Both the position numbers and the translations under genes were made by a program. Below, piece after piece: positions 26,286 to 35,686 of a stretch of DNA of 52,445 nucleotides. The stretch spans positions 1 to 52,445 of the forward strand of contig MWZA01000167.1 in assembly GCA_002050455.1 (NCBI GenBank), in the 5' to 3' direction. The stretch comes from Acidobacteria bacterium 5-1. Its GTDB lineage: Bacteria; Acidobacteriota; Blastocatellia; Pyrinomonadales; Pyrinomonadaceae. The first letter of the stretch is position 1. Each line of letters opens with the position of its first letter. The notes under the pieces were generated by a model. It was given only the letters and a program-made list of their open reading frames with translations. It was not told the DNA's origin and did no database searches.

Positions 26286-26605
26286 TCAAGTAGTAAAGCG
26301 TTTATTAGTTAAAGTTGTGGACTCGGCGTTTAACGCTGTGCCAAACGGTAAAGTAGTTTGCTTGGAATTTGTGCCAGCCGCCTGATTCGTAATTGTTCTT
26401 GTTCCCAATCTGTCGGGATGGTTGAACTCGGTTGATTCCGCGCCACTCGCGTTGCTGATAGTTGAAAGCATTCCGTCGCCCAGATATGTATAGCTTTTCG
26501 TCCACGTCGGCACGGCATATGTGTATTTGACATATTCCGCCAATGTCGTCCCGCCCAAGTTGGCGTAAAATGTCGTCAGATAGGTCGTATAATTTTGCAC
26601 TAGGG
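26286..26605 (-). pseudogene. Truncated Rhs core-tip relic
   Basis: YANLGGTTLAEYVKYTYAVPTWTKSYTYLGDGMLSTISNASGAESTEFNHPDRLGTRTITNQAAGT..., homologous to 30.3-30.7 kb; stops after NKRFT, no toxin domain. Confidence 0.85.
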
Positions 26606-27295
26606 CGTGGCACGCTCCCCGTGACAATCTAAATCTACATCAAATTCAGAGGTCAAATAGTCACATAGCTCAATGAGTCTCTTTCCGTCTTGAAAAGACG
26701 TGTTTTGCCCATAAAACACTCGACGATACTCACCCTTATCAAGAACTTCCAGTAAGATCACAGGTTCATCCCTGCTTAGTTGAAATTGAGGATCACGGAC
26801 GAGTCCTTTTGGGGTAGTAAGTCGGTTCCTCACCTCGAATAGCACTCTGTTCCAACCAGATTTCGGACTCGCAAGGTGTTCTTTACGAAATCTGATCGGA
26901 TCCAAAGCCCTGTTTATGTCGAAAAAATATGCGTGATTCTCGCTTCCGCTTGAGCGAACGATCAGCGATTTTGCGTCGCCAAGACCACCTAGATTGGTCC
27001 AGAGTCGGAACTCAAATTCCTCGGGTCGGGCGGTTTTCGGAAGCGGAGCCAATCCTAGTTTTTGGGAAATTTTTTTAATGTCTGTTGTAAGACCCTCTTC
27101 GATGAATTCATAAGAATCAATCTCGATGAGGTCGCCACCACTTGGAAGATCGGCATTTACCTGAACACTTTCGTTCGTGTTTCGGTTAACACGCTGATCA
27201 GTGAACAAACAGCCGGATGACAGAAGAATTATAAAAGACGCGATTACAGAAAACAGAACTGATCTCCACATAGATTTGATACCTCGATGACCCAT
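26600..27295 (-). CDS. Lipoprotein, candidate immunity protein of the JAB-type Rhs-CT module
   Basis: Signal peptide with lipobox LLSSGC; directly downstream of the displaced CT. Confidence 0.6.
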   Translation of the reverse strand: MGHRGIKSMWRSVLFSVIASFIILLSSGCLFTDQRVNRNTNESVQVNADLPSGGDLIEIDSYEFIEEGLTTDIKKISQKLGLAPLPKTARPEEFEFRLWTNLGGLGDAKSLIVRSSGSENHAYFFDINRALDPIRFRKEHLASPKSGWNRVLFEVRNRLTTPKGLVRDPQFQLSRDEPVILLEVLDKGEYRRVFYGQNTSFQDGKRLIELCDYLTSEFDVDLDCHGERATP

Positions 27296-27303
27296 ATGGA
27301 ATG

Positions 27304-27573
27304 CTACCTTTGAATCCTACACAAAGCCTTTTTCCCATCGAACACTGCGACTTCTGTCCGCGATACTGTAGCTTCTGGCTTTCCTTTAGACCAGCGCTTG
27401 TCTCCTTCTGATGGTCTAACTTTAGTGTCTGTCGGGTGCGTATGAACAACGAGGGTAGTATAATCTGCCAACCCCCTTATTCGCTTTCTTTCAATTACCC
27501 AGTCATTGAACTCATCACCCATACCATCCTTTATATGTCTTTCCGTTGTACTCGTCCAGTCCATTTTCTTCAA
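27304..27573 (-). CDS. JAMM/JAB-type metalloprotease toxin fragment (C-terminal part of displaced Rhs-CT)
   Basis: VVHTHPTDTKVRPSEGD fits HxHPx7SxxD; in +1 frame relative to the upstream Rhs fragment. Confidence 0.7.
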   Translation of the reverse strand: MKKMDWTSTTERHIKDGMGDEFNDWVIERKRIRGLADYTTLVVHTHPTDTKVRPSEGDKRWSKGKPEATVSRTEVAVFDGKKALCRIQR

Positions 27574-28636
27574 TTCCTCCTATAGAAACCTTGCTATTGC
27601 TAATATAGATTACCCCACCCTGTTCTTTTCCGTTAGGAGCCTCCTCGGATTTGCTATTCTGCGTCTTTTCCCAAAGTTTATCAAAGTAAGGCTTAAGCAA
27701 GGAATAATAGGTTTTAAGATAATGGTTACATACGTCCAAAGTCTTTTTACCTTTGGCTTGTAAACTATTCGCTACCGCCCCGACTCCGCTCAACACTCCA
27801 GACCAACCCTGATCGCCTCTTGAATCACCACTGACGTAACTATTTCCCATCTTTCCGGCGATCACGCTGCCAAAACCTGCCACTACCGCTATTATTCCTA
27901 ATATCAACCCGGCGCGTCTGAAGCCGAAGGCATTCAGCACTTGCGATGCCGCACTTGCTCCTGCACTGATAGCTGACAGTATCCCAGCTATGGTTGCCGG
28001 AGCCGCCAAAACCCCCACAATTGTCACAACTGCCACTATGACGGCTACCGCCACCAATACCCATTTGAACAGTTTTTTGAAAAATCCCCAAAACAATCCG
28101 CTTGGGTCAGTATAATTTATCGGGTCGTTGCCGCAGTAAGCATATAAATTTAAGGTTTGTGGAGAAGCCAGATTTGCCGCACCCATTCCAATTGGGTCAA
28201 CCTGCGTGAATCTACCTTGCTTTGAATCATATGTTCGATTAACCGCATAATCAAGACCTGTCCGTGCGCTTCGGTCGTAAGAGGTAAATCGTTTGTTGGT
28301 TGAAGTTGTTGATTCGGCATTTAACGCTGTTCCAAATGGCAATGTCGTTTGTTCATAAGAGCTACCTGTTGCCTGATTCGTAATCGTTCTTGTTCCCAAT
28401 CTATCAGGATGATTGAACTCCGTGGATTCGCCGCCCGTGCCGTTCGGCGTAATGGTCGAGAGCATACTGTCGCCTAAATAGACATAACTCTTTGTCCATG
28501 TCGGCACATTTACGCCATATTCCGTGTATTCCGAAAGAACCGTTCCGCCGTTTGAAACGTAAATCGTCGCCAGATACGTTATCAAATCGTAAGCTATCAA
28601 TCGGGCATTGCTTGCTCCGTATTGAAAACTCTGCAA
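27515..28636 (-). pseudogene. Displaced Rhs core-tip + pre-toxin TM region + N-terminal part of JAB-like domain
   Basis: NRTYDSKQGRFTQVDPIGMGAANLASPQTLNLYAYCGNDPINYTDPSGLF; ends ...KEQGGVIYISNSKVSIGG...KGWYG*. Degraded Rhs homology extends upstream to ~28775. Confidence 0.85.
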
Positions 28637-28791
28637 CGGCGTTCCGTCATCTCGTCTGACGACTACAAGACGATTCGCCGAATCATATTCAAACCTGAGC
28701 CACGTTACGCCGTCTTTGGATAAGGCGCATGCTTGATTTTACTCCTTCATTGTATTTAAAACCTACAGGTGTAATCCAAATCCCGCAGTAT

Positions 28792-29349
28792 TCATTTTAT
28801 CCACTGCTTAGAATTTACAGACTTATCAACAGATTCCTCTAGTTTGTATAATATATTCAAATCTCTGTTTACAGCTTCGCTCGGATTTGTGGTTTCAACA
28901 CAACCGTGATAGTGACTTACCCTTTTCACGATTTTCCCATCAGAGTATGATATAAAGACAAAGGGGGAATCCGAGAGAACGGGGTTGGAACAATTTTCTC
29001 CCCGAACGTATTTGTCTTTAAGTTTGAAAAACTGCGAGTTTTCGAATAAATGAATCAATTGTTCCAATTGAGATCTATCCAGCTTACTCTCAACCAAGCC
29101 TTTCGTCTTAACATTTTTCTCTCCTTCAAAGACAACTTTCCCCGTGTCATAGATTGAAATCTTGTAAACTGGACATTGACCGAAGCACTCACCAAACCGT
29201 CTATCCAAAACAATGATGGGTTGCTCCAGTTGAAAGGAATTGTTACCTTTTGCTTCGGTGTCTTCGAGCAATGGTCCAGATACACTTGTAGAATTTGAGG
29301 CGCATGCCTGCAGGAATAAGATGATAAATACTAGTATAAACTTAAACAT
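28792..29349 (-). CDS. DUF6438-like lipoprotein, candidate immunity protein for the Rhs zincin toxin
   Basis: Lipobox LFLQAC; RRFGECFGQCPVYKISIYDTGKVVFEGEKNVKTKG; immediately downstream of rhs. Confidence 0.65.
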   Translation of the reverse strand: MFKFILVFIILFLQACASNSTSVSGPLLEDTEAKGNNSFQLEQPIIVLDRRFGECFGQCPVYKISIYDTGKVVFEGEKNVKTKGLVESKLDRSQLEQLIHLFENSQFFKLKDKYVRGENCSNPVLSDSPFVFISYSDGKIVKRVSHYHGCVETTNPSEAVNRDLNILYKLEESVDKSVNSKQWIK

Positions 29350-29369: not shown

Positions 29370-32300
29370 TCAAAAGCACTTCTTACTAATTGTGGAATTG
29401 AAATCCTCGGGGCTTTCTGGGACATTTGAAATCGGCACTCCATTAGCGTCCACAGGATGTGTTATGCCGCTTACAACGTGCCTTAACTCGTGCAGAATGG
29501 TTACCTGCCGCGCCCTCGCAGCATCTCGCGGTCCGCTAGAATAACCACCGACTGTATCCAAAAAGAACTTATCACCCAAATAAATCTTGCCATTGGCTCC
29601 TGCACCTTCGGTTCCCCTTGCTACGCCTCCACCACCACCAATCTTCTCGTTATGTGTTACTTCTCGTCTTTTTTGTATTTTTTCTAAAATGTCTTTAGCA
29701 TCTAATCCCGAAGTACCTTCAATATATTTTTTACAAGCACCTTTGAGCCTCGCCAAAGCACCTGCGACTGCATTGTCTGTTATAATCTGAACTTGACTCC
29801 TCTCCGATCTTTTCCTTCTCTTTTTATCTTTGGTCTGAGCCAAGATATTCGCCACCGCTCCGACTCCACTCAGCACTCCAAACCAACTTGGATCGCGTTC
29901 TGAATCACCACTGACGAACGTATTTCCAATTTTTCCGGCTATCACGCTTCCAAAACCTGCTGCTATCGCTATTAGTCCAAATATCAAACCGGCTTTTTTG
30001 AAGCCAAGCGCATTGAGAACCTGCGATGCCGCATTTGCTCCGGCACTAATTGCTGAAAGTATTCCAACCAGGGTTGCCGGAACCGCCACGATTGTCAGCA
30101 CGGCGACTACGACGGCAATGGCAATCAAAACCCATTTGAATAGCTTCTTGAAAAATCCCCAAAACAATCCGCTTGGGTCGGTGTGATTTATCGGGTCATT
30201 GCCGCAATAAGCGTAAAGATTCAATGTTTGCGGTGAGCCAAGACTTGACGCACCTATCCCAATCGGGTCAACAGAGGTGAATCTACCCTGCTTGGAATCG
30301 TATGTTCGGTTGACCGCATAATCCAAGCCGGTTCTCGCGCTTCTGTCGTAGGAGGTGAATCGCTTGCTCGTTGAAGTTGTGGACTCGGCATTTAAGGCTG
30401 TGCCGAACGGCAATGTGGTTTGTTCATAAGAGCTACCTGTTGCCTGATTCGTAATCGTTCTTGTTCCTAATCTGTCTGGATGATTGAACTCCGTGGATTC
30501 GCCGCCCGTGCCGTTTGGTGTAATTGTCGAGAGTTGACTATCTCCGAGATAAACATAACTCTTTGTCCACGTCGGCACGGCTGATGTGTATTCGTGATAC
30601 TCCGAAAGAGTTGTCCCGCCTAAATTCGCATAAAGAATAGACTCGCCTGAAATGTAATCATAGTTCATCAGCCGTCCGTTTGACGGGCTGTATTGAAATG
30701 CCTGCAAATAAGTTCCGTCATCTCGTTTGACAATGCTCAAGCGATTTGCCGAATCATATTCCATTCTCAGCCAACTTCCGTCTTCAGCTAAAGCACGGGT
30801 TTGATTGCCTGCTACATCGTATTCAAAACCTGCCGTCGTGATGCGGTTTGAGGTTGCGTTATAGGTCAGATTGGCAATACCATCTCTTGGAATCGTCGTA
30901 TTATCCGCCGCCACGCCCGAAGCCGTTACCGATGTGCGATTGCCGTAGCGGTCATAACTATATTGCTGCTGCCACAGATTGCCGCCGTTGCCGCCTTTGG
31001 CTTTCGTCAAACGTCCCAAAGCGTCGTATTCATATTCACGATTCTTGTTATTGTCGAGATTGTTGATGATTTTCGAAAGATGTCCCGTTTTACCATTCAA
31101 GTTACCGACGCTGTTGTTTCGCTGGTAGTCGTAGCTCAAATCCAGCAGAGTCTGCCCACTTCTCTGCACTTTCTGATTTGTAAGCAGTCCCGTCTGCGGG
31201 TCAAAGGTGTAATCTTCATTAACCTGATTTGCTCCCGCCACTCCGATATTTATCGAAGTCGTCTGGTCTGATGCGTTATAGACAATATCTGCGGCTTGCT
31301 GCTGCCCGTCAACCTTCAAAGATGTCAAACGGCTGGCGACATCAAAGGTGTGCTGAACTACTTTGCGCGGACTGCCCGCCGAGCCGTATTGCGCCGGATA
31401 GCGAACATCCGTTACTCGATTGAGCGTGTCATACAAATAACTGGTCGTCATCGGATAACTCTCACGAGAAGCCACAGTTTGCGTGTAATCGCTGACTCTG
31501 CCTTCCGCGTCATAACTGTATTCTTCTTTGACCAGTCCGGGAGATTCTATCTTTTTGATACGTTCCTTGTCGCCCGTCGGCATATATTCATACGTTACGT
31601 TAAAGGCGGCGTTGATTGGCAGATTCGGCTCTCTCGGTCCTGACGAATCGTAAATTACTGCCTGCAAACGATTGAGCGCATCTTCCGCGCCATTGGCAAG
31701 ATTGTAATAAGCAAAGTTTGTTTTAACGCCTCTTGCATCGGTTCTCTGTGTCAAATTTGAGCGCGTGTCGTAAATAAAAGCCTCGCTCCACTGTGCGCCC
31801 GTTTGTCCCGCGCCGACAAATGCGCCCGCCTCGTTCAAAGTAGCGGTTTGCTCGGCAAGTTTTTGGCGCGTCAATCTGCCCAAACTGTCGTATTTGAAGC
31901 GGCGTTGCTGAACGCCCTGTTCGGTTTCGACAAGCCTGCCAACTGTATCGTAATTGTATTTTGTTACCAGACTGCCCGCCGCCAAAACCGAGCCGTTAGC
32001 ATTCGGATTCGGCTCGACGACTTCCGCCAATCTGCCTTGCTGGTCATAACGTCCCCAACGCTCTCGTCCCCAAGCATCCGCTACCCGCATTGTATTGCCG
32101 GGCAGATTCGAGGCTGAATCGGGACGCTGTGTTTCATTATAAAATGCCTGCGAAAAATTTCCGTCAGGTTCAATAACCTTAGTTGTTCTGCCCTGCGTGT
32201 CGTAAATCGTCTCAGTCCACTGCACCGCGTCGCCCGCTCTAAAGGGGCGCGACTGCTTCCAAACCTGTCCGAGTTTGTTGTATCTGGTTTCGACAATATC

Positions 32301-35300
32301 CCAGATATTGTTTGCGCCGAGTGCTTCTTCACGCTTTACCTGTCCCAAGCCGTTCAGATATTTTATGCTCTTTCCGGCAAGATTTCCTCCGGCTTCGTGA
32401 ACTTCTTCCGTTACGGTCATCGCCGCGTCGTCATAAAAATTAGCTGTGTAAGCTCCGGTCGAAGAAGAGGAAATGGTCGGGCGCAGCGTGTAGGAATCAT
32501 ACTGCGCGTTGGAAACATTCCCGTTTGCGTCGGTTGCCTGCGTAACCAAGCCGGTTTCAAATGCGTAAACCGCGCTCGTCGTTACTCTGTCAGGAGAATT
32601 CGGATCGCTTGAGCCGCGCGTCCGCGATTCGGGATAAGCATACTGCGTCGCGCTCGTATATTGGAAACTCATCTGCTGGCAGCACGAAGTCGTCGCCGTA
32701 ACCATATTGCCCGTAATGTCGTAACTTCTTGTTTCGCTTATCTCTCCCGTGTGATTTTGAGCATCCGTATAGTTTTTAACTTTTGTTACATTTCCCCTTG
32801 CCGCGGTGCTTGGGTCATATGCGTTGACTTGCTCATATTCAATACACCATTGGCAAGGGCTTAGCGTAGGCTCATCACAACTAGGGTCTTCCTCCCAAAG
32901 AAGACAGGTGTCGCCGTCTCTCGTTTCGGTTGTGTAAGGGTCGTAAGTATAATCGTGTTGAATAACGCCGGGAGTATTTGCAAGCGGCTGGCTTTGATAA
33001 TTGTCATACTCATATTCCGTCCACGAGGCTTTTGTTCCGTCTGGATTTTCAACTCCCTTCGCCGTTACTAAATTAAAATGGTGTCTGGCAATATAAGACG
33101 GGCTGTTTTCATATTGAGCAACACTGCACCGCATTTTAACTCCCGCATTATCATAATCGCACGAGCGCGTAACTTGATTGAACCTGCCGCCCGTATAATC
33201 ATATTCGGTTGTAACTTTTTGATTGTTTTCATCGTCGAAAACTTCCGTTCTTGACGGACGCGGCGACTCATATTCACCCTGCGCCCAGGTTACGACGGAA
33301 TGGCTGGCTAATTTGAATGTTCCGGTAATATTCGGAATAGTTATTCCATTAGCATCCGGCACGTAAGTTTCATCCTGATAAACAAGCCCGTCCTTATATT
33401 TATCGGGATGGGTGTCGGCAAGCGAACTGTAGTTATAGGCATATTGTCTGCTGACCGCTCCGTTCGGCTGCATAATGGTCGTTACCCGCGGCACAGCATT
33501 CTGTTGAAGATTGTAAGTGGTAACGGCGGAAGCGTCATCCATCCCGTCCCAACTTTCCGTTAAAATCTCGTATGTCGGAGCATCTGACAGATTTATGCCG
33601 TTTGTTCTTCCTGCGTCGTTAGCGGTTGTCAACGGATAATTATAAACGGCTTGTTTGGTCATTTGTCCGGCAGTAATAATTCCTTGCTCTTCGGCACTTG
33701 ACTGCCAATTCATCCCGCGCTGCTCTTGAACTTTCGTGAGCATTCCGTAAGTTGAGTAATACGAGGAATAATCAGACGAATTAGGGTCTGCGCCGCCAAA
33801 CCAATAGCCGGTTCTCGTCGCCGGATAATAAACGGCATCCAAAACCCACGGCGCGTTGTCTCTGACGACTACGCCCGTGCCGTAAGCAAAAGAATAGTTT
33901 AGCGGCAGCTGCCGGTAATGAAACCGCACCAATGTTCGAGTGCGTCGTCCTCCTTCAAATCCGAGTGTTCGCGGAGCGGTAACATTTAACAAATGTCCGG
34001 CTGAATCATAGTTGAAGAAAATAATCCGTCCCATCGTGTCGCTAACGGTTTCGATATTCGGACCTTGATTGTTTTTATAAGTAATGTTGATGTAATTGCC
34101 GTTAGCATCGGTAATTCTTGTCGGATAAACGGCTCCGTTGCCCGAAGCACCGTATAAAATGCTAGTTCCGTTGGGCATATTGACGTTAGCCGTAGAGATA
34201 CCGGAACTCAGCCTCGTGCTGTTATAGTCAATAAAAGTTCCGTCGCTCGTGTGTCCGCTAAAATATGAACCGGTTACCGAACCGGTAAAGCCGTGTCTTG
34301 TTCCGTCGGCATCCACAATCATACTGCCGCCGTTCGCTCCCAAATCCATCACTTTGCCGAAGCCGAGCGACCAGCCCGGAGAAGGAAAGCCGCGGTCAAT
34401 ATCGTAAGTCAACTGCGAGCCTGATTTGTTCCACAGCCGCGAGTTGTAATTCAAGTTCAAAGCCAAATCAATTCCGCGCCCCGGCAGAGAAATTACCGGA
34501 GCCGAGAGTTGAAAATTTCCGCTTCCCGCGCCGTCGTCGGCAGGATGCCCGGGCGGGTTGCCGGGATTGTTGCCCGGGTCATCAAATGATTGCCAGTTTC
34601 CGTCATTCCAACCGCCGTCTTCCGGCAAGTTCAGTTCGGGCGACGAGCCGCTTTCCGTTTCCTTACCGGAATCTTTTGTATTTGATTCGTCGTTATCTTT
34701 TTCCTTAACGCTATCGGATGAACGAGAAGAAATAGTGCGGCTTTCCGATGATTTTAAATTCGATTGCGGGGAATTTCCTGTCGTTGACGGATTAACTGTA
34801 ACTGTTGCCTGCGCCGTTTGATTAGCCCTTTTCACCGTTATGGTAAATGTTCCGGGAATCCGCGCCTTAAAGCGGCTGTCAAGAAGCGGGCGGGCGGCGC
34901 GTCCGCGTCCGGTATCGGAAACCTTCCATTTAAAATCAAGCCCGCTAAGCGGTTCATTTTGTGCGTCGTATCCGATTGCTGAAAAAATGACTTGCTCGCC
35001 TTGATTAACGGTAACCGAGCCGGGCAGAATCTGAATTCTGGCAACAGATGGATTTTGATTGGAACTGCCGGCTGAGAGAAACGCTCCGGCAAACCAGCCG
35101 GGAAAATTAACTGCCCAATCACCGGAAAAGAATCCGAATCTGACATCTTGGGTAAAATTATTTACCGCGCCGACGATTGTTTGCGGTGCTGCCGGAACTG
35201 ATACCGACAGTAAGTTGAAACACAAAACAAAACAGAGAATCCGTGTTATTCGGTGATGTTTATAGATTTGAACGGCTGTTTTTTTTGTCTTGGAAATTGA

Positions 35301-35315
35301 CTTTCTTGAACGCAT
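29370..35315 (-). CDS. Full-length Rhs/YD-repeat protein with N-terminal export signal, Ig-like domain and C-terminal zincin-like metallopeptidase toxin
   Basis: Multiple YD repeats, DPIGIGASSLGSPQTLNLYAYCGNDPINHTDPSGLF core end, C-terminal TILHELRHVVSG. Start Met chosen at MRSRKS; ORF track start 35348. Confidence 0.93.
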   Translation of the reverse strand: MRSRKSISKTKKTAVQIYKHHRITRILCFVLCFNLLSVSVPAAPQTIVGAVNNFTQDVRFGFFSGDWAVNFPGWFAGAFLSAGSSNQNPSVARIQILPGSVTVNQGEQVIFSAIGYDAQNEPLSGLDFKWKVSDTGRGRAARPLLDSRFKARIPGTFTITVKRANQTAQATVTVNPSTTGNSPQSNLKSSESRTISSRSSDSVKEKDNDESNTKDSGKETESGSSPELNLPEDGGWNDGNWQSFDDPGNNPGNPPGHPADDGAGSGNFQLSAPVISLPGRGIDLALNLNYNSRLWNKSGSQLTYDIDRGFPSPGWSLGFGKVMDLGANGGSMIVDADGTRHGFTGSVTGSYFSGHTSDGTFIDYNSTRLSSGISTANVNMPNGTSILYGASGNGAVYPTRITDANGNYINITYKNNQGPNIETVSDTMGRIIFFNYDSAGHLLNVTAPRTLGFEGGRRTRTLVRFHYRQLPLNYSFAYGTGVVVRDNAPWVLDAVYYPATRTGYWFGGADPNSSDYSSYYSTYGMLTKVQEQRGMNWQSSAEEQGIITAGQMTKQAVYNYPLTTANDAGRTNGINLSDAPTYEILTESWDGMDDASAVTTYNLQQNAVPRVTTIMQPNGAVSRQYAYNYSSLADTHPDKYKDGLVYQDETYVPDANGITIPNITGTFKLASHSVVTWAQGEYESPRPSRTEVFDDENNQKVTTEYDYTGGRFNQVTRSCDYDNAGVKMRCSVAQYENSPSYIARHHFNLVTAKGVENPDGTKASWTEYEYDNYQSQPLANTPGVIQHDYTYDPYTTETRDGDTCLLWEEDPSCDEPTLSPCQWCIEYEQVNAYDPSTAARGNVTKVKNYTDAQNHTGEISETRSYDITGNMVTATTSCCQQMSFQYTSATQYAYPESRTRGSSDPNSPDRVTTSAVYAFETGLVTQATDANGNVSNAQYDSYTLRPTISSSSTGAYTANFYDDAAMTVTEEVHEAGGNLAGKSIKYLNGLGQVKREEALGANNIWDIVETRYNKLGQVWKQSRPFRAGDAVQWTETIYDTQGRTTKVIEPDGNFSQAFYNETQRPDSASNLPGNTMRVADAWGRERWGRYDQQGRLAEVVEPNPNANGSVLAAGSLVTKYNYDTVGRLVETEQGVQQRRFKYDSLGRLTRQKLAEQTATLNEAGAFVGAGQTGAQWSEAFIYDTRSNLTQRTDARGVKTNFAYYNLANGAEDALNRLQAVIYDSSGPREPNLPINAAFNVTYEYMPTGDKERIKKIESPGLVKEEYSYDAEGRVSDYTQTVASRESYPMTTSYLYDTLNRVTDVRYPAQYGSAGSPRKVVQHTFDVASRLTSLKVDGQQQAADIVYNASDQTTSINIGVAGANQVNEDYTFDPQTGLLTNQKVQRSGQTLLDLSYDYQRNNSVGNLNGKTGHLSKIINNLDNNKNREYEYDALGRLTKAKGGNGGNLWQQQYSYDRYGNRTSVTASGVAADNTTIPRDGIANLTYNATSNRITTAGFEYDVAGNQTRALAEDGSWLRMEYDSANRLSIVKRDDGTYLQAFQYSPSNGRLMNYDYISGESILYANLGGTTLSEYHEYTSAVPTWTKSYVYLGDSQLSTITPNGTGGESTEFNHPDRLGTRTITNQATGSSYEQTTLPFGTALNAESTTSTSKRFTSYDRSARTGLDYAVNRTYDSKQGRFTSVDPIGIGASSLGSPQTLNLYAYCGNDPINHTDPSGLFWGFFKKLFKWVLIAIAVVVAVLTIVAVPATLVGILSAISAGANAASQVLNALGFKKAGLIFGLIAIAAGFGSVIAGKIGNTFVSGDSERDPSWFGVLSGVGAVANILAQTKDKKRRKRSERSQVQIITDNAVAGALARLKGACKKYIEGTSGLDAKDILEKIQKRREVTHNEKIGGGGGVARGTEGAGANGKIYLGDKFFLDTVGGYSSGPRDAARARQVTILHELRHVVSGITHPVDANGVPISNVPESPEDFNSTISKKCF

Positions 35316-35686
35316 GATTTTTGGTACCTTCGCAAACAAAATATACATACCATACGAAATTGATAGAACAATCGCAAAGAATTTTTCTATTTATTTCTAT
35401 ATTGCAATTGAAAAGTAACAAAACAGTTATATAAATGCAGCTTGTCGCTTCAATAATTAGCAAAATAACTCTGGTTATCTCAAAAGTTTTAATTTCTAGA
35501 AAAAAATCTACGCGAATGTTTATTTTTTCTCTGTATTTCTGAGTAAAAAACTATATCGGAAAGTTATCCATTGTAGTTTTTCAATAAAATACTGTATCTT
35601 GTGTCTTTGCTGCATATTTAGCGGAGCTGTAATTTATGCACAATTTTATTGATACGTTTTGAAGCGGAAAAGAATTATCCACAAGG

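What the first reader, a model, noticed from the sequence alone, without database searches (positions are those of the whole stretch)
27304..28775. Displaced Rhs-CT module with a JAMM/JAB protease split by a +1 frame change and an internal ribosome-binding site
The upstream frame encodes the expected JAB start (KEQGGVIYISNSK) and ends KGWYG* at TGA. The +1 frame continues DEFNDWVIERKRIRGLADYTTLVVHTHPTDTKVRPSEGD with the JAMM metal motif. Upstream of the second frame is AGGAGGAATTGAAGAAAATG, a strong Shine-Dalgarno. This could be decay, a sequencing indel, a +1 recoding event at GGG-TGA, or a separately translated toxin half.
Basis: partly seen in the sequence, partly recalled or inferred. Interest (0 to 1): 0.72.

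Follow-up and report, generated by a model that had tools for sequence, protein, structure and literature searches.

The report
Broken spare toxin gene, immunity intact
A stored, unused bacterial toxin segment next to a large Rhs weapon gene carries a reading-frame break that separates the two halves of its metal-binding active site, while the neighbouring protective gene stays intact; relatives carry the same toxin unbroken, so this looks like ordinary decay (or an assembly slip), not a new way of making proteins.

Summary
An intact Rhs gene (29370-35348) and its putative immunity gene are followed by a displaced Rhs core plus toxin end (frame 0, TGA at 27517-27515), the rest of that end in the +1 frame (to 27304), and a lipoprotein gene. 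The toxin half found no homologue directly; the lipoprotein led to relatives where it lies behind a single-frame domain with E-x-G-G and HTHP (seven intact copies in all). A profile of these picks exactly two of 308 window ORFs, the two frames (19.4 and 23.9 bits; best of 2000 shuffles 8.2). The Glu lies in one frame and HxH...S..D in the other, so neither product carries a complete JAMM site. Intact relatives do not share the break; one other copy (L078) is broken elsewhere. The Shine-Dalgarno sequence is real, but similar ones precede out-of-frame starts in four of seven intact relatives. Recoding at GGG-TGA and a separately translated half are poorly supported. Best reading: a recent frame break in an orphan toxin with immunity retained; an assembly indel in this MAG cannot be excluded. 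The JAMM-like toxin and lipoprotein pair matches no family model above threshold.

The parts
29370..35348 (-). Intact Rhs gene, 1992 aa, with Rhs-associated core and a C-terminal domain with a zincin-like HELRH motif
   Evidence: TIGR03696 E 5.8e-18, RHS_repeat E 2.4e-17; HELRH read in sequence
28792..29349 (-). Lipoprotein with DUF6438 domain, putative immunity protein of the intact Rhs gene
   Evidence: PF20033 E 3.7e-26; position directly downstream
27515..28636 (-). Displaced Rhs core fragment plus first part of the C-terminal toxin domain (frame 0, from first TTG), ends at TGA 27517-27515
   Evidence: 81% aa identity to intact Rhs over 298 aa, TIGR03696 E 2.3e-19; profile of intact homologues 19.4 bits
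27623..27625 (-). Glu codon of the E-x-G-G motif (putative JAMM glutamate), frame 0
   Evidence: E-x-G-G present in all 7 single-frame homologues
27525..27565 (-). Stretch in which the reading frame changes (position approximate)
   Evidence: Codon usage best at 27529-27530; +1-frame homology starts upstream of the TGA
27304..27573 (-). +1-frame continuation of the toxin domain (89 aa from TTG)
   Evidence: Profile of intact homologues 23.9 bits; BLASTP to L078 second frame 30% over 86 columns
27400..27444 (-). HTHP...S-x2-D, JAMM metal-binding motif, +1 frame
   Evidence: Sequence; Prok-JAB PF14464 weak match E 0.035, below cut-off; HTHP invariant in homologues
27562..27581 (-). AGGAGG-N11-ATG, Shine-Dalgarno-like sequence before an ATG in the +1 frame
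   Evidence: judged incidental
26600..27295 (-). Lipoprotein (probable start at 27271, lipobox LSSGC), putative immunity protein of the JAMM toxin
   Evidence: Homologues lie directly downstream of the JAMM domain in L063-L068, L078, L079
26286..26606 (-). Third, shorter Rhs core remnant with an internal TGA and no toxin end
   Evidence: 69% aa identity over 108 aa, repeat family D1

Best explanation
This is an orphan (displaced) Rhs C-terminal toxin/immunity module downstream of an intact Rhs gene. The toxin was a single-frame JAMM-type domain; an indel in the 27525-27565 stretch, probably recent, broke its frame, so the Glu and the HxH...S..D parts of the putative active site are no longer on one polypeptide. 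The downstream lipoprotein immunity gene is intact. [quoted passage not shown] With the frame broken, the module can supply at most immunity. Shown: anatomy, homology of both frames to one domain, single-frame relatives, intact immunity gene. Inferred: inactivity, the mutation being real in the organism, toxin chemistry and target.
For: Displaced core 73-82% identical to the intact gene. Seven single-frame relatives, each followed by a lipoprotein of the same family. Both window frames and no other ORF match their profile. No further stop in the +1 frame, and its end CRIQR* corresponds to CTFNR*/CTFDRQ*/CYFDR* in relatives, so the break is recent relative to their divergence. The break of another relative (L078/L080) lies some 10-25 codons nearer the Glu, and L070 and L077 are damaged in other ways, so breakage is recurrent and not positioned. 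Neighbouring window genes, including a 1992-codon Rhs, are unbroken. Orphan rhs-CT modules lacking start signals and activated by recombination are documented in Salmonella (PMC3967940).
Against: The assembly is a MAG (223 contigs, 79% complete) and no reads or second assembly were available, so an assembly indel is possible. The displaced core does not look freely decayed (dN/dS 0.165 against the intact copy), although most of that divergence may predate displacement. An exact AGGAGG before a +1-frame start was found in none of 11665 comparable in-gene windows, so the Shine-Dalgarno sequence is unusual in itself.
Confidence: 0.65

Rival explanations
1. Assembly or sequencing indel: the organism carries the toxin in one frame and the break exists only in the contig.
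For: MAG with 223 contigs; no other stop in either frame over the whole domain; intact relatives exist.
Against: Longest homopolymer in the 27515-27573 stretch is only four bases; other long genes of the window are unbroken; another relative in a different genome is also broken, at another place.
Confidence: 0.27
2. Programmed +1 frameshifting at GGG-TGA makes a full-length toxin.
For: A slip at GGG-TGA would give a product of nearly the ancestral length; a second family member, L078, is also shifted in the same sense (E-to-H distance 3n+1 nt in both).
Against: Seven relatives are single-frame; +1-frame homology begins upstream of the TGA; the break in L078 is at a different place; no conserved slippery site; the orphan module has no start of its own.
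Confidence: 0.04
3. The +1 frame is translated separately from AGGAGG-ATG (27581-27562) as a self-standing toxin half or regulatory peptide.
For: The only exact AGGAGG-N4-12-ATG in the window, none in 11665 in-gene control windows; L078 also has AGGAGG ahead of a +1-frame TTG.
Against: The product lacks the conserved Glu and the first strands of the domain; SD-like sequences (one mismatch) lie behind out-of-frame starts in 4 of 7 intact relatives, mostly made by the conserved Gly-Gly codons; such near-matches occur in 2% of in-gene windows; nothing would bring the half to the Rhs carrier for export (inference).
Confidence: 0.04

Closest known systems
Orphan rhs-CT/rhsI modules (Koskiniemi et al. 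2014, PMC3967940)
   Same: Core fragment plus toxin end plus immunity gene downstream of a main rhs gene, without start or export signals, sharing homology with the main gene
   Different: Here the toxin frame is broken; the host is not an enterobacterium; immunity candidates are lipoproteins; core identity about 80% rather than 95%
Tox-JAB-1 and Tox-JAB-2 (DUF4329) toxin domains (Zhang et al. 2012, PMC3482391)
   Same: JAMM-type residues (E, HxH, S, D) at the C-terminus of Rhs proteins with an adjacent immunity gene
   Different: No match to either family's Pfam model; the immunity protein matches none of the known families; the paper lists Tox-JAB-1 in Bacteroidetes only, with Imm65, and Tox-JAB-2 with an NTF2-like immunity protein
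Prok-JAB (PF14464) and RadC JAB domain (PDB 2qlc)
   Same: Sub-threshold matches in the right register: the Glu near profile position 19 and the HTHP region; RadC E 0.12
   Different: All below curated cut-offs; those proteins are intracellular, not Rhs toxin ends

Membership tests
Orphan rhs-CT/immunity module | Fragment homologous to the 3' part of an adjacent full-length rhs gene | tested here: met
   27766-28715 matches the intact gene at 73-82%
Orphan rhs-CT/immunity module | Lacks the N-terminal part, start and export signal | tested here: met
   Open frame begins inside the core, 407 codons in all
Orphan rhs-CT/immunity module | Linked immunity gene | tested here: inconclusive
   Conserved linkage of the lipoprotein family to the toxin domain in 8 relatives; protection not testable
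JAMM (MPN+) metalloenzyme domain | Upstream Glu and HxH-x(n)-S-x2-D | tested here: met
   Present in the window over two frames and in homologues in one frame
JAMM (MPN+) metalloenzyme domain | Significant match to a JAMM family model | tested here: inconclusive
   Prok-JAB E 0.0023-0.058, below cut-off, in 4 of 7 sequences scanned; RadC E 0.12
JAMM (MPN+) metalloenzyme domain | Metal-dependent hydrolase activity | not testable with these tools
   Needs an enzyme assay on an intact relative
[quoted passage not shown]
   No match at E up to 1 for six intact relatives, nor up to 10 for the window pieces
Programmed +1 frameshifting | Frame break conserved among homologues | tested here: not met
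   Seven relatives single-frame; the other frame-broken one is broken elsewhere
Programmed +1 frameshifting | Frame change located at the recoding codon | tested here: inconclusive
   +1-frame homology begins upstream of the TGA by 2.3-3.9 bits; codon usage points to 27529-27530; both modest

The most novel reading that the evidence does not exclude
Orphan toxins of this family are made in two pieces on purpose: the second half has its own ribosome-binding site and the active site forms only when both halves meet, so the stored toxin stays harmless. L078 being shifted in the same sense, with an AGGAGG ahead of its second frame, is the only hint of recurrence.
Probability: 0.03. Interest if true: 0.8.

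Novelty: new member of a known kind. Interest (0 to 1): 0.27.

Why it matters
The frame break itself is ordinary. What is worth keeping is a family of Rhs-borne JAMM-like domains with a conserved lipoprotein partner in this bacterial class, matched by no Pfam, NCBIfam, PHROGs or PADLOC model above threshold. It gives a clean set of intact toxin/immunity candidates for asking whether toxin JAB domains cut proteins or nucleic acids, a question raised by Zhang et al. 2012, and it shows repeated loss of the toxin with the immunity gene kept.

Tried and rejected
Direct searches with the +1-frame half: 145 relatives, 396 genomes of the phylum, plasmids, PDB sequences, IMG/VR and GTDB contigs, all without a true homologue (the weak phylum hits were read and are unrelated). 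The frame-0 piece alone in the order: only itself. DUF4329 search: an Rhs end in L023 with a similar E...HTHP layout, but a different family. The closest same-genus Rhs (G007) carries another end. Fold of the lipoprotein from two sequences: mean pLDDT 43, not used.

Full report
Where and what. The window is contig 158 of a draft genome in 223 contigs, 79% complete, which looks like a metagenome-assembled genome. All the features lie on the minus strand. Reading 5' to 3': an intact Rhs gene of 1992 codons (29370-35348), a DUF6438 lipoprotein (28792-29349), a second Rhs core fragment with its own C-terminal end (from about 28715), a lipoprotein (26600-27271 or 27295), and a third, shorter core remnant (26286-26606) with an internal stop. 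The second fragment repeats the intact gene at 73-82% nucleotide identity over 27766-28715 and at 81% amino-acid identity over 298 residues. This is the arrangement known as orphan rhs-CT/immunity modules, which in Salmonella lack initiation and export signals and become active by recombination with the main gene (PMC3967940). A second array of this kind lies on contig 134 of the same genome.

The frame break. Frame 0 ends at TGA 27517-27515 after ...GKEQGGVIYISNSKVSIGGIEENGLDEYNGKTYKGWYG. The +1 frame, open from about 27579, carries ...DGMGDEFNDWVIERKRIRGLADYTTLVVHTHPTDTKVRPSEGD... to a stop at 27304.

Finding relatives. The +1-frame half found no homologue directly in 396 genomes of the phylum, in plasmids, PDB, viral contigs or GTDB contigs. 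The downstream lipoprotein did: eight relatives in the phylum and two in GTDB contigs, L069 (Pyrinomonadaceae, 48%) and L070 (Chloracidobacterium sp. UBA7659, up to 90%). In six of the eight (L063-L068) the gene immediately upstream, same strand, ends in a single-frame domain with E-x-G-G, about 54-63 codons later HTHP, and a short tail with a conserved Cys. A profile of these recovered three more in the class: L079, intact and with the lipoprotein; L077, truncated; and L078, in which the domain is again split over two frames, with an unbroken lipoprotein behind it. L070 keeps only a remnant with HTHPD upstream of its lipoprotein. Lipoprotein genes without a recognisable toxin also occur (L061, L062, L069).

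Both window frames belong to one domain. Against the profile of intact relatives (with the L077/L078 pieces), frame 0 scores 19.4 bits and the +1 frame 23.9 bits, covering successive profile positions (27-77 and 70-130); no other ORF among 308 in the window exceeds 1.5 bits, and the best of 2000 shuffles is 8.2 (frame 0 within its whole ORF scores 15.3). The +1 frame ends CRIQR*, as relatives end CTFNR*, CTFDRQ*, CYFDR*, and has no further stop. So the domain was one frame, and the break is recent relative to the divergence of these relatives.

Where the frame changes. Codon usage of the window's genes favours a switch near 27529-27530. Profile scores rise by 2.3-3.9 bits when the +1 frame is extended upstream of the TGA by DGMG, which corresponds to GSMG in L066 and RAMG in L078. 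Extending frame 0 to the TGA adds little. The evidence is modest and gives a range, 27525-27565, rather than a point; it argues against GGG-TGA being the place where the frame should change. In L078 the break is some 10-25 codons nearer the Glu. No break is shared, so conserved recoding is not supported.

The Shine-Dalgarno sequence. AGGAGG-N11-ATG is real and unique in the window; no exact AGGAGG before a +1-frame start was met in 11665 in-gene windows, and near-matches in 2%. Yet four of seven intact relatives (L065, L066, L067, L079) also have an SD-like hexamer (one mismatch) ahead of an out-of-frame start between Glu and HTHP, mostly made by the conserved Gly-Gly codons. A product begun at 27564 would lack the Glu. 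I judge it incidental, with the caveat that an exact match is uncommon.

What the domain is. The residues E, HxH, S, D fit a JAMM signature. Pfam's Prok-JAB matches four of seven sequences below its cut-off, in the right register, and RadC is a sub-threshold PDB match. Neither Tox-JAB-1 nor DUF4329 matches; NCBIfam, PHROGs and PADLOC give nothing above threshold. Whether it is a peptidase or, as Zhang et al. (PMC3482391) suggest for toxin JAB domains, a nuclease is unknown. The partner lipoprotein family is confirmed by a profile built without the window's copy (86.7 bits) and matches no Pfam family above its cut-off. That the partner is a lipoprotein suggests protection in the envelope; this is inference.

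Real or artefact. No reads are at hand. For a real break: no long homopolymer at the site, unbroken neighbouring genes, repeated damage in other copies of this family (L070, L077, L078) and a stop in the third remnant. Against: this is a draft assembly, and the core of the module still shows constraint against the intact copy (dN/dS 0.165, dS 0.84), which may mostly predate displacement. I put a real break at 0.65 and an assembly indel at 0.27.

Verdict. It is a broken orphan toxin with its immunity gene kept, in an apparently undescribed family of JAMM-like Rhs toxin ends (no paper found beyond Zhang et al.).

Noticed in passing
L059 (G000:C134:9000-26000): A second Rhs gene in the same genome is followed by several displaced core plus toxin-end plus immunity modules, most of them in open frames.
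   Followed up: partly
L080 (reverse strand, 2371-2646): A zincin-like toxin end behind the broken JAMM module reads LLHGLKH, without the HExxH glutamate seen in the window's intact Rhs end (HELRH), so it may be a degenerate copy.
   Followed up: no
G016:C17, G016:C41, G096:C25, G096:C9: Runs of Rhs core matches close together on one contig suggest very large orphan arrays in this bacterial class.
   Followed up: no
L061, L062, L069: Lipoproteins of the JAMM-toxin immunity family stand without a recognisable toxin upstream, as orphan immunity genes would.
   Followed up: partly
L023 (778-1902): An Rhs protein of the same phylum with an intact DUF4329-type JAB end (EYGG...HTHP), a different family from the one described here.
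   Followed up: no
window 28792-29349: A DUF6438 lipoprotein sits in the immunity position of the intact Rhs gene; DUF6438 may be an immunity family for zincin-type ends.
   Followed up: no
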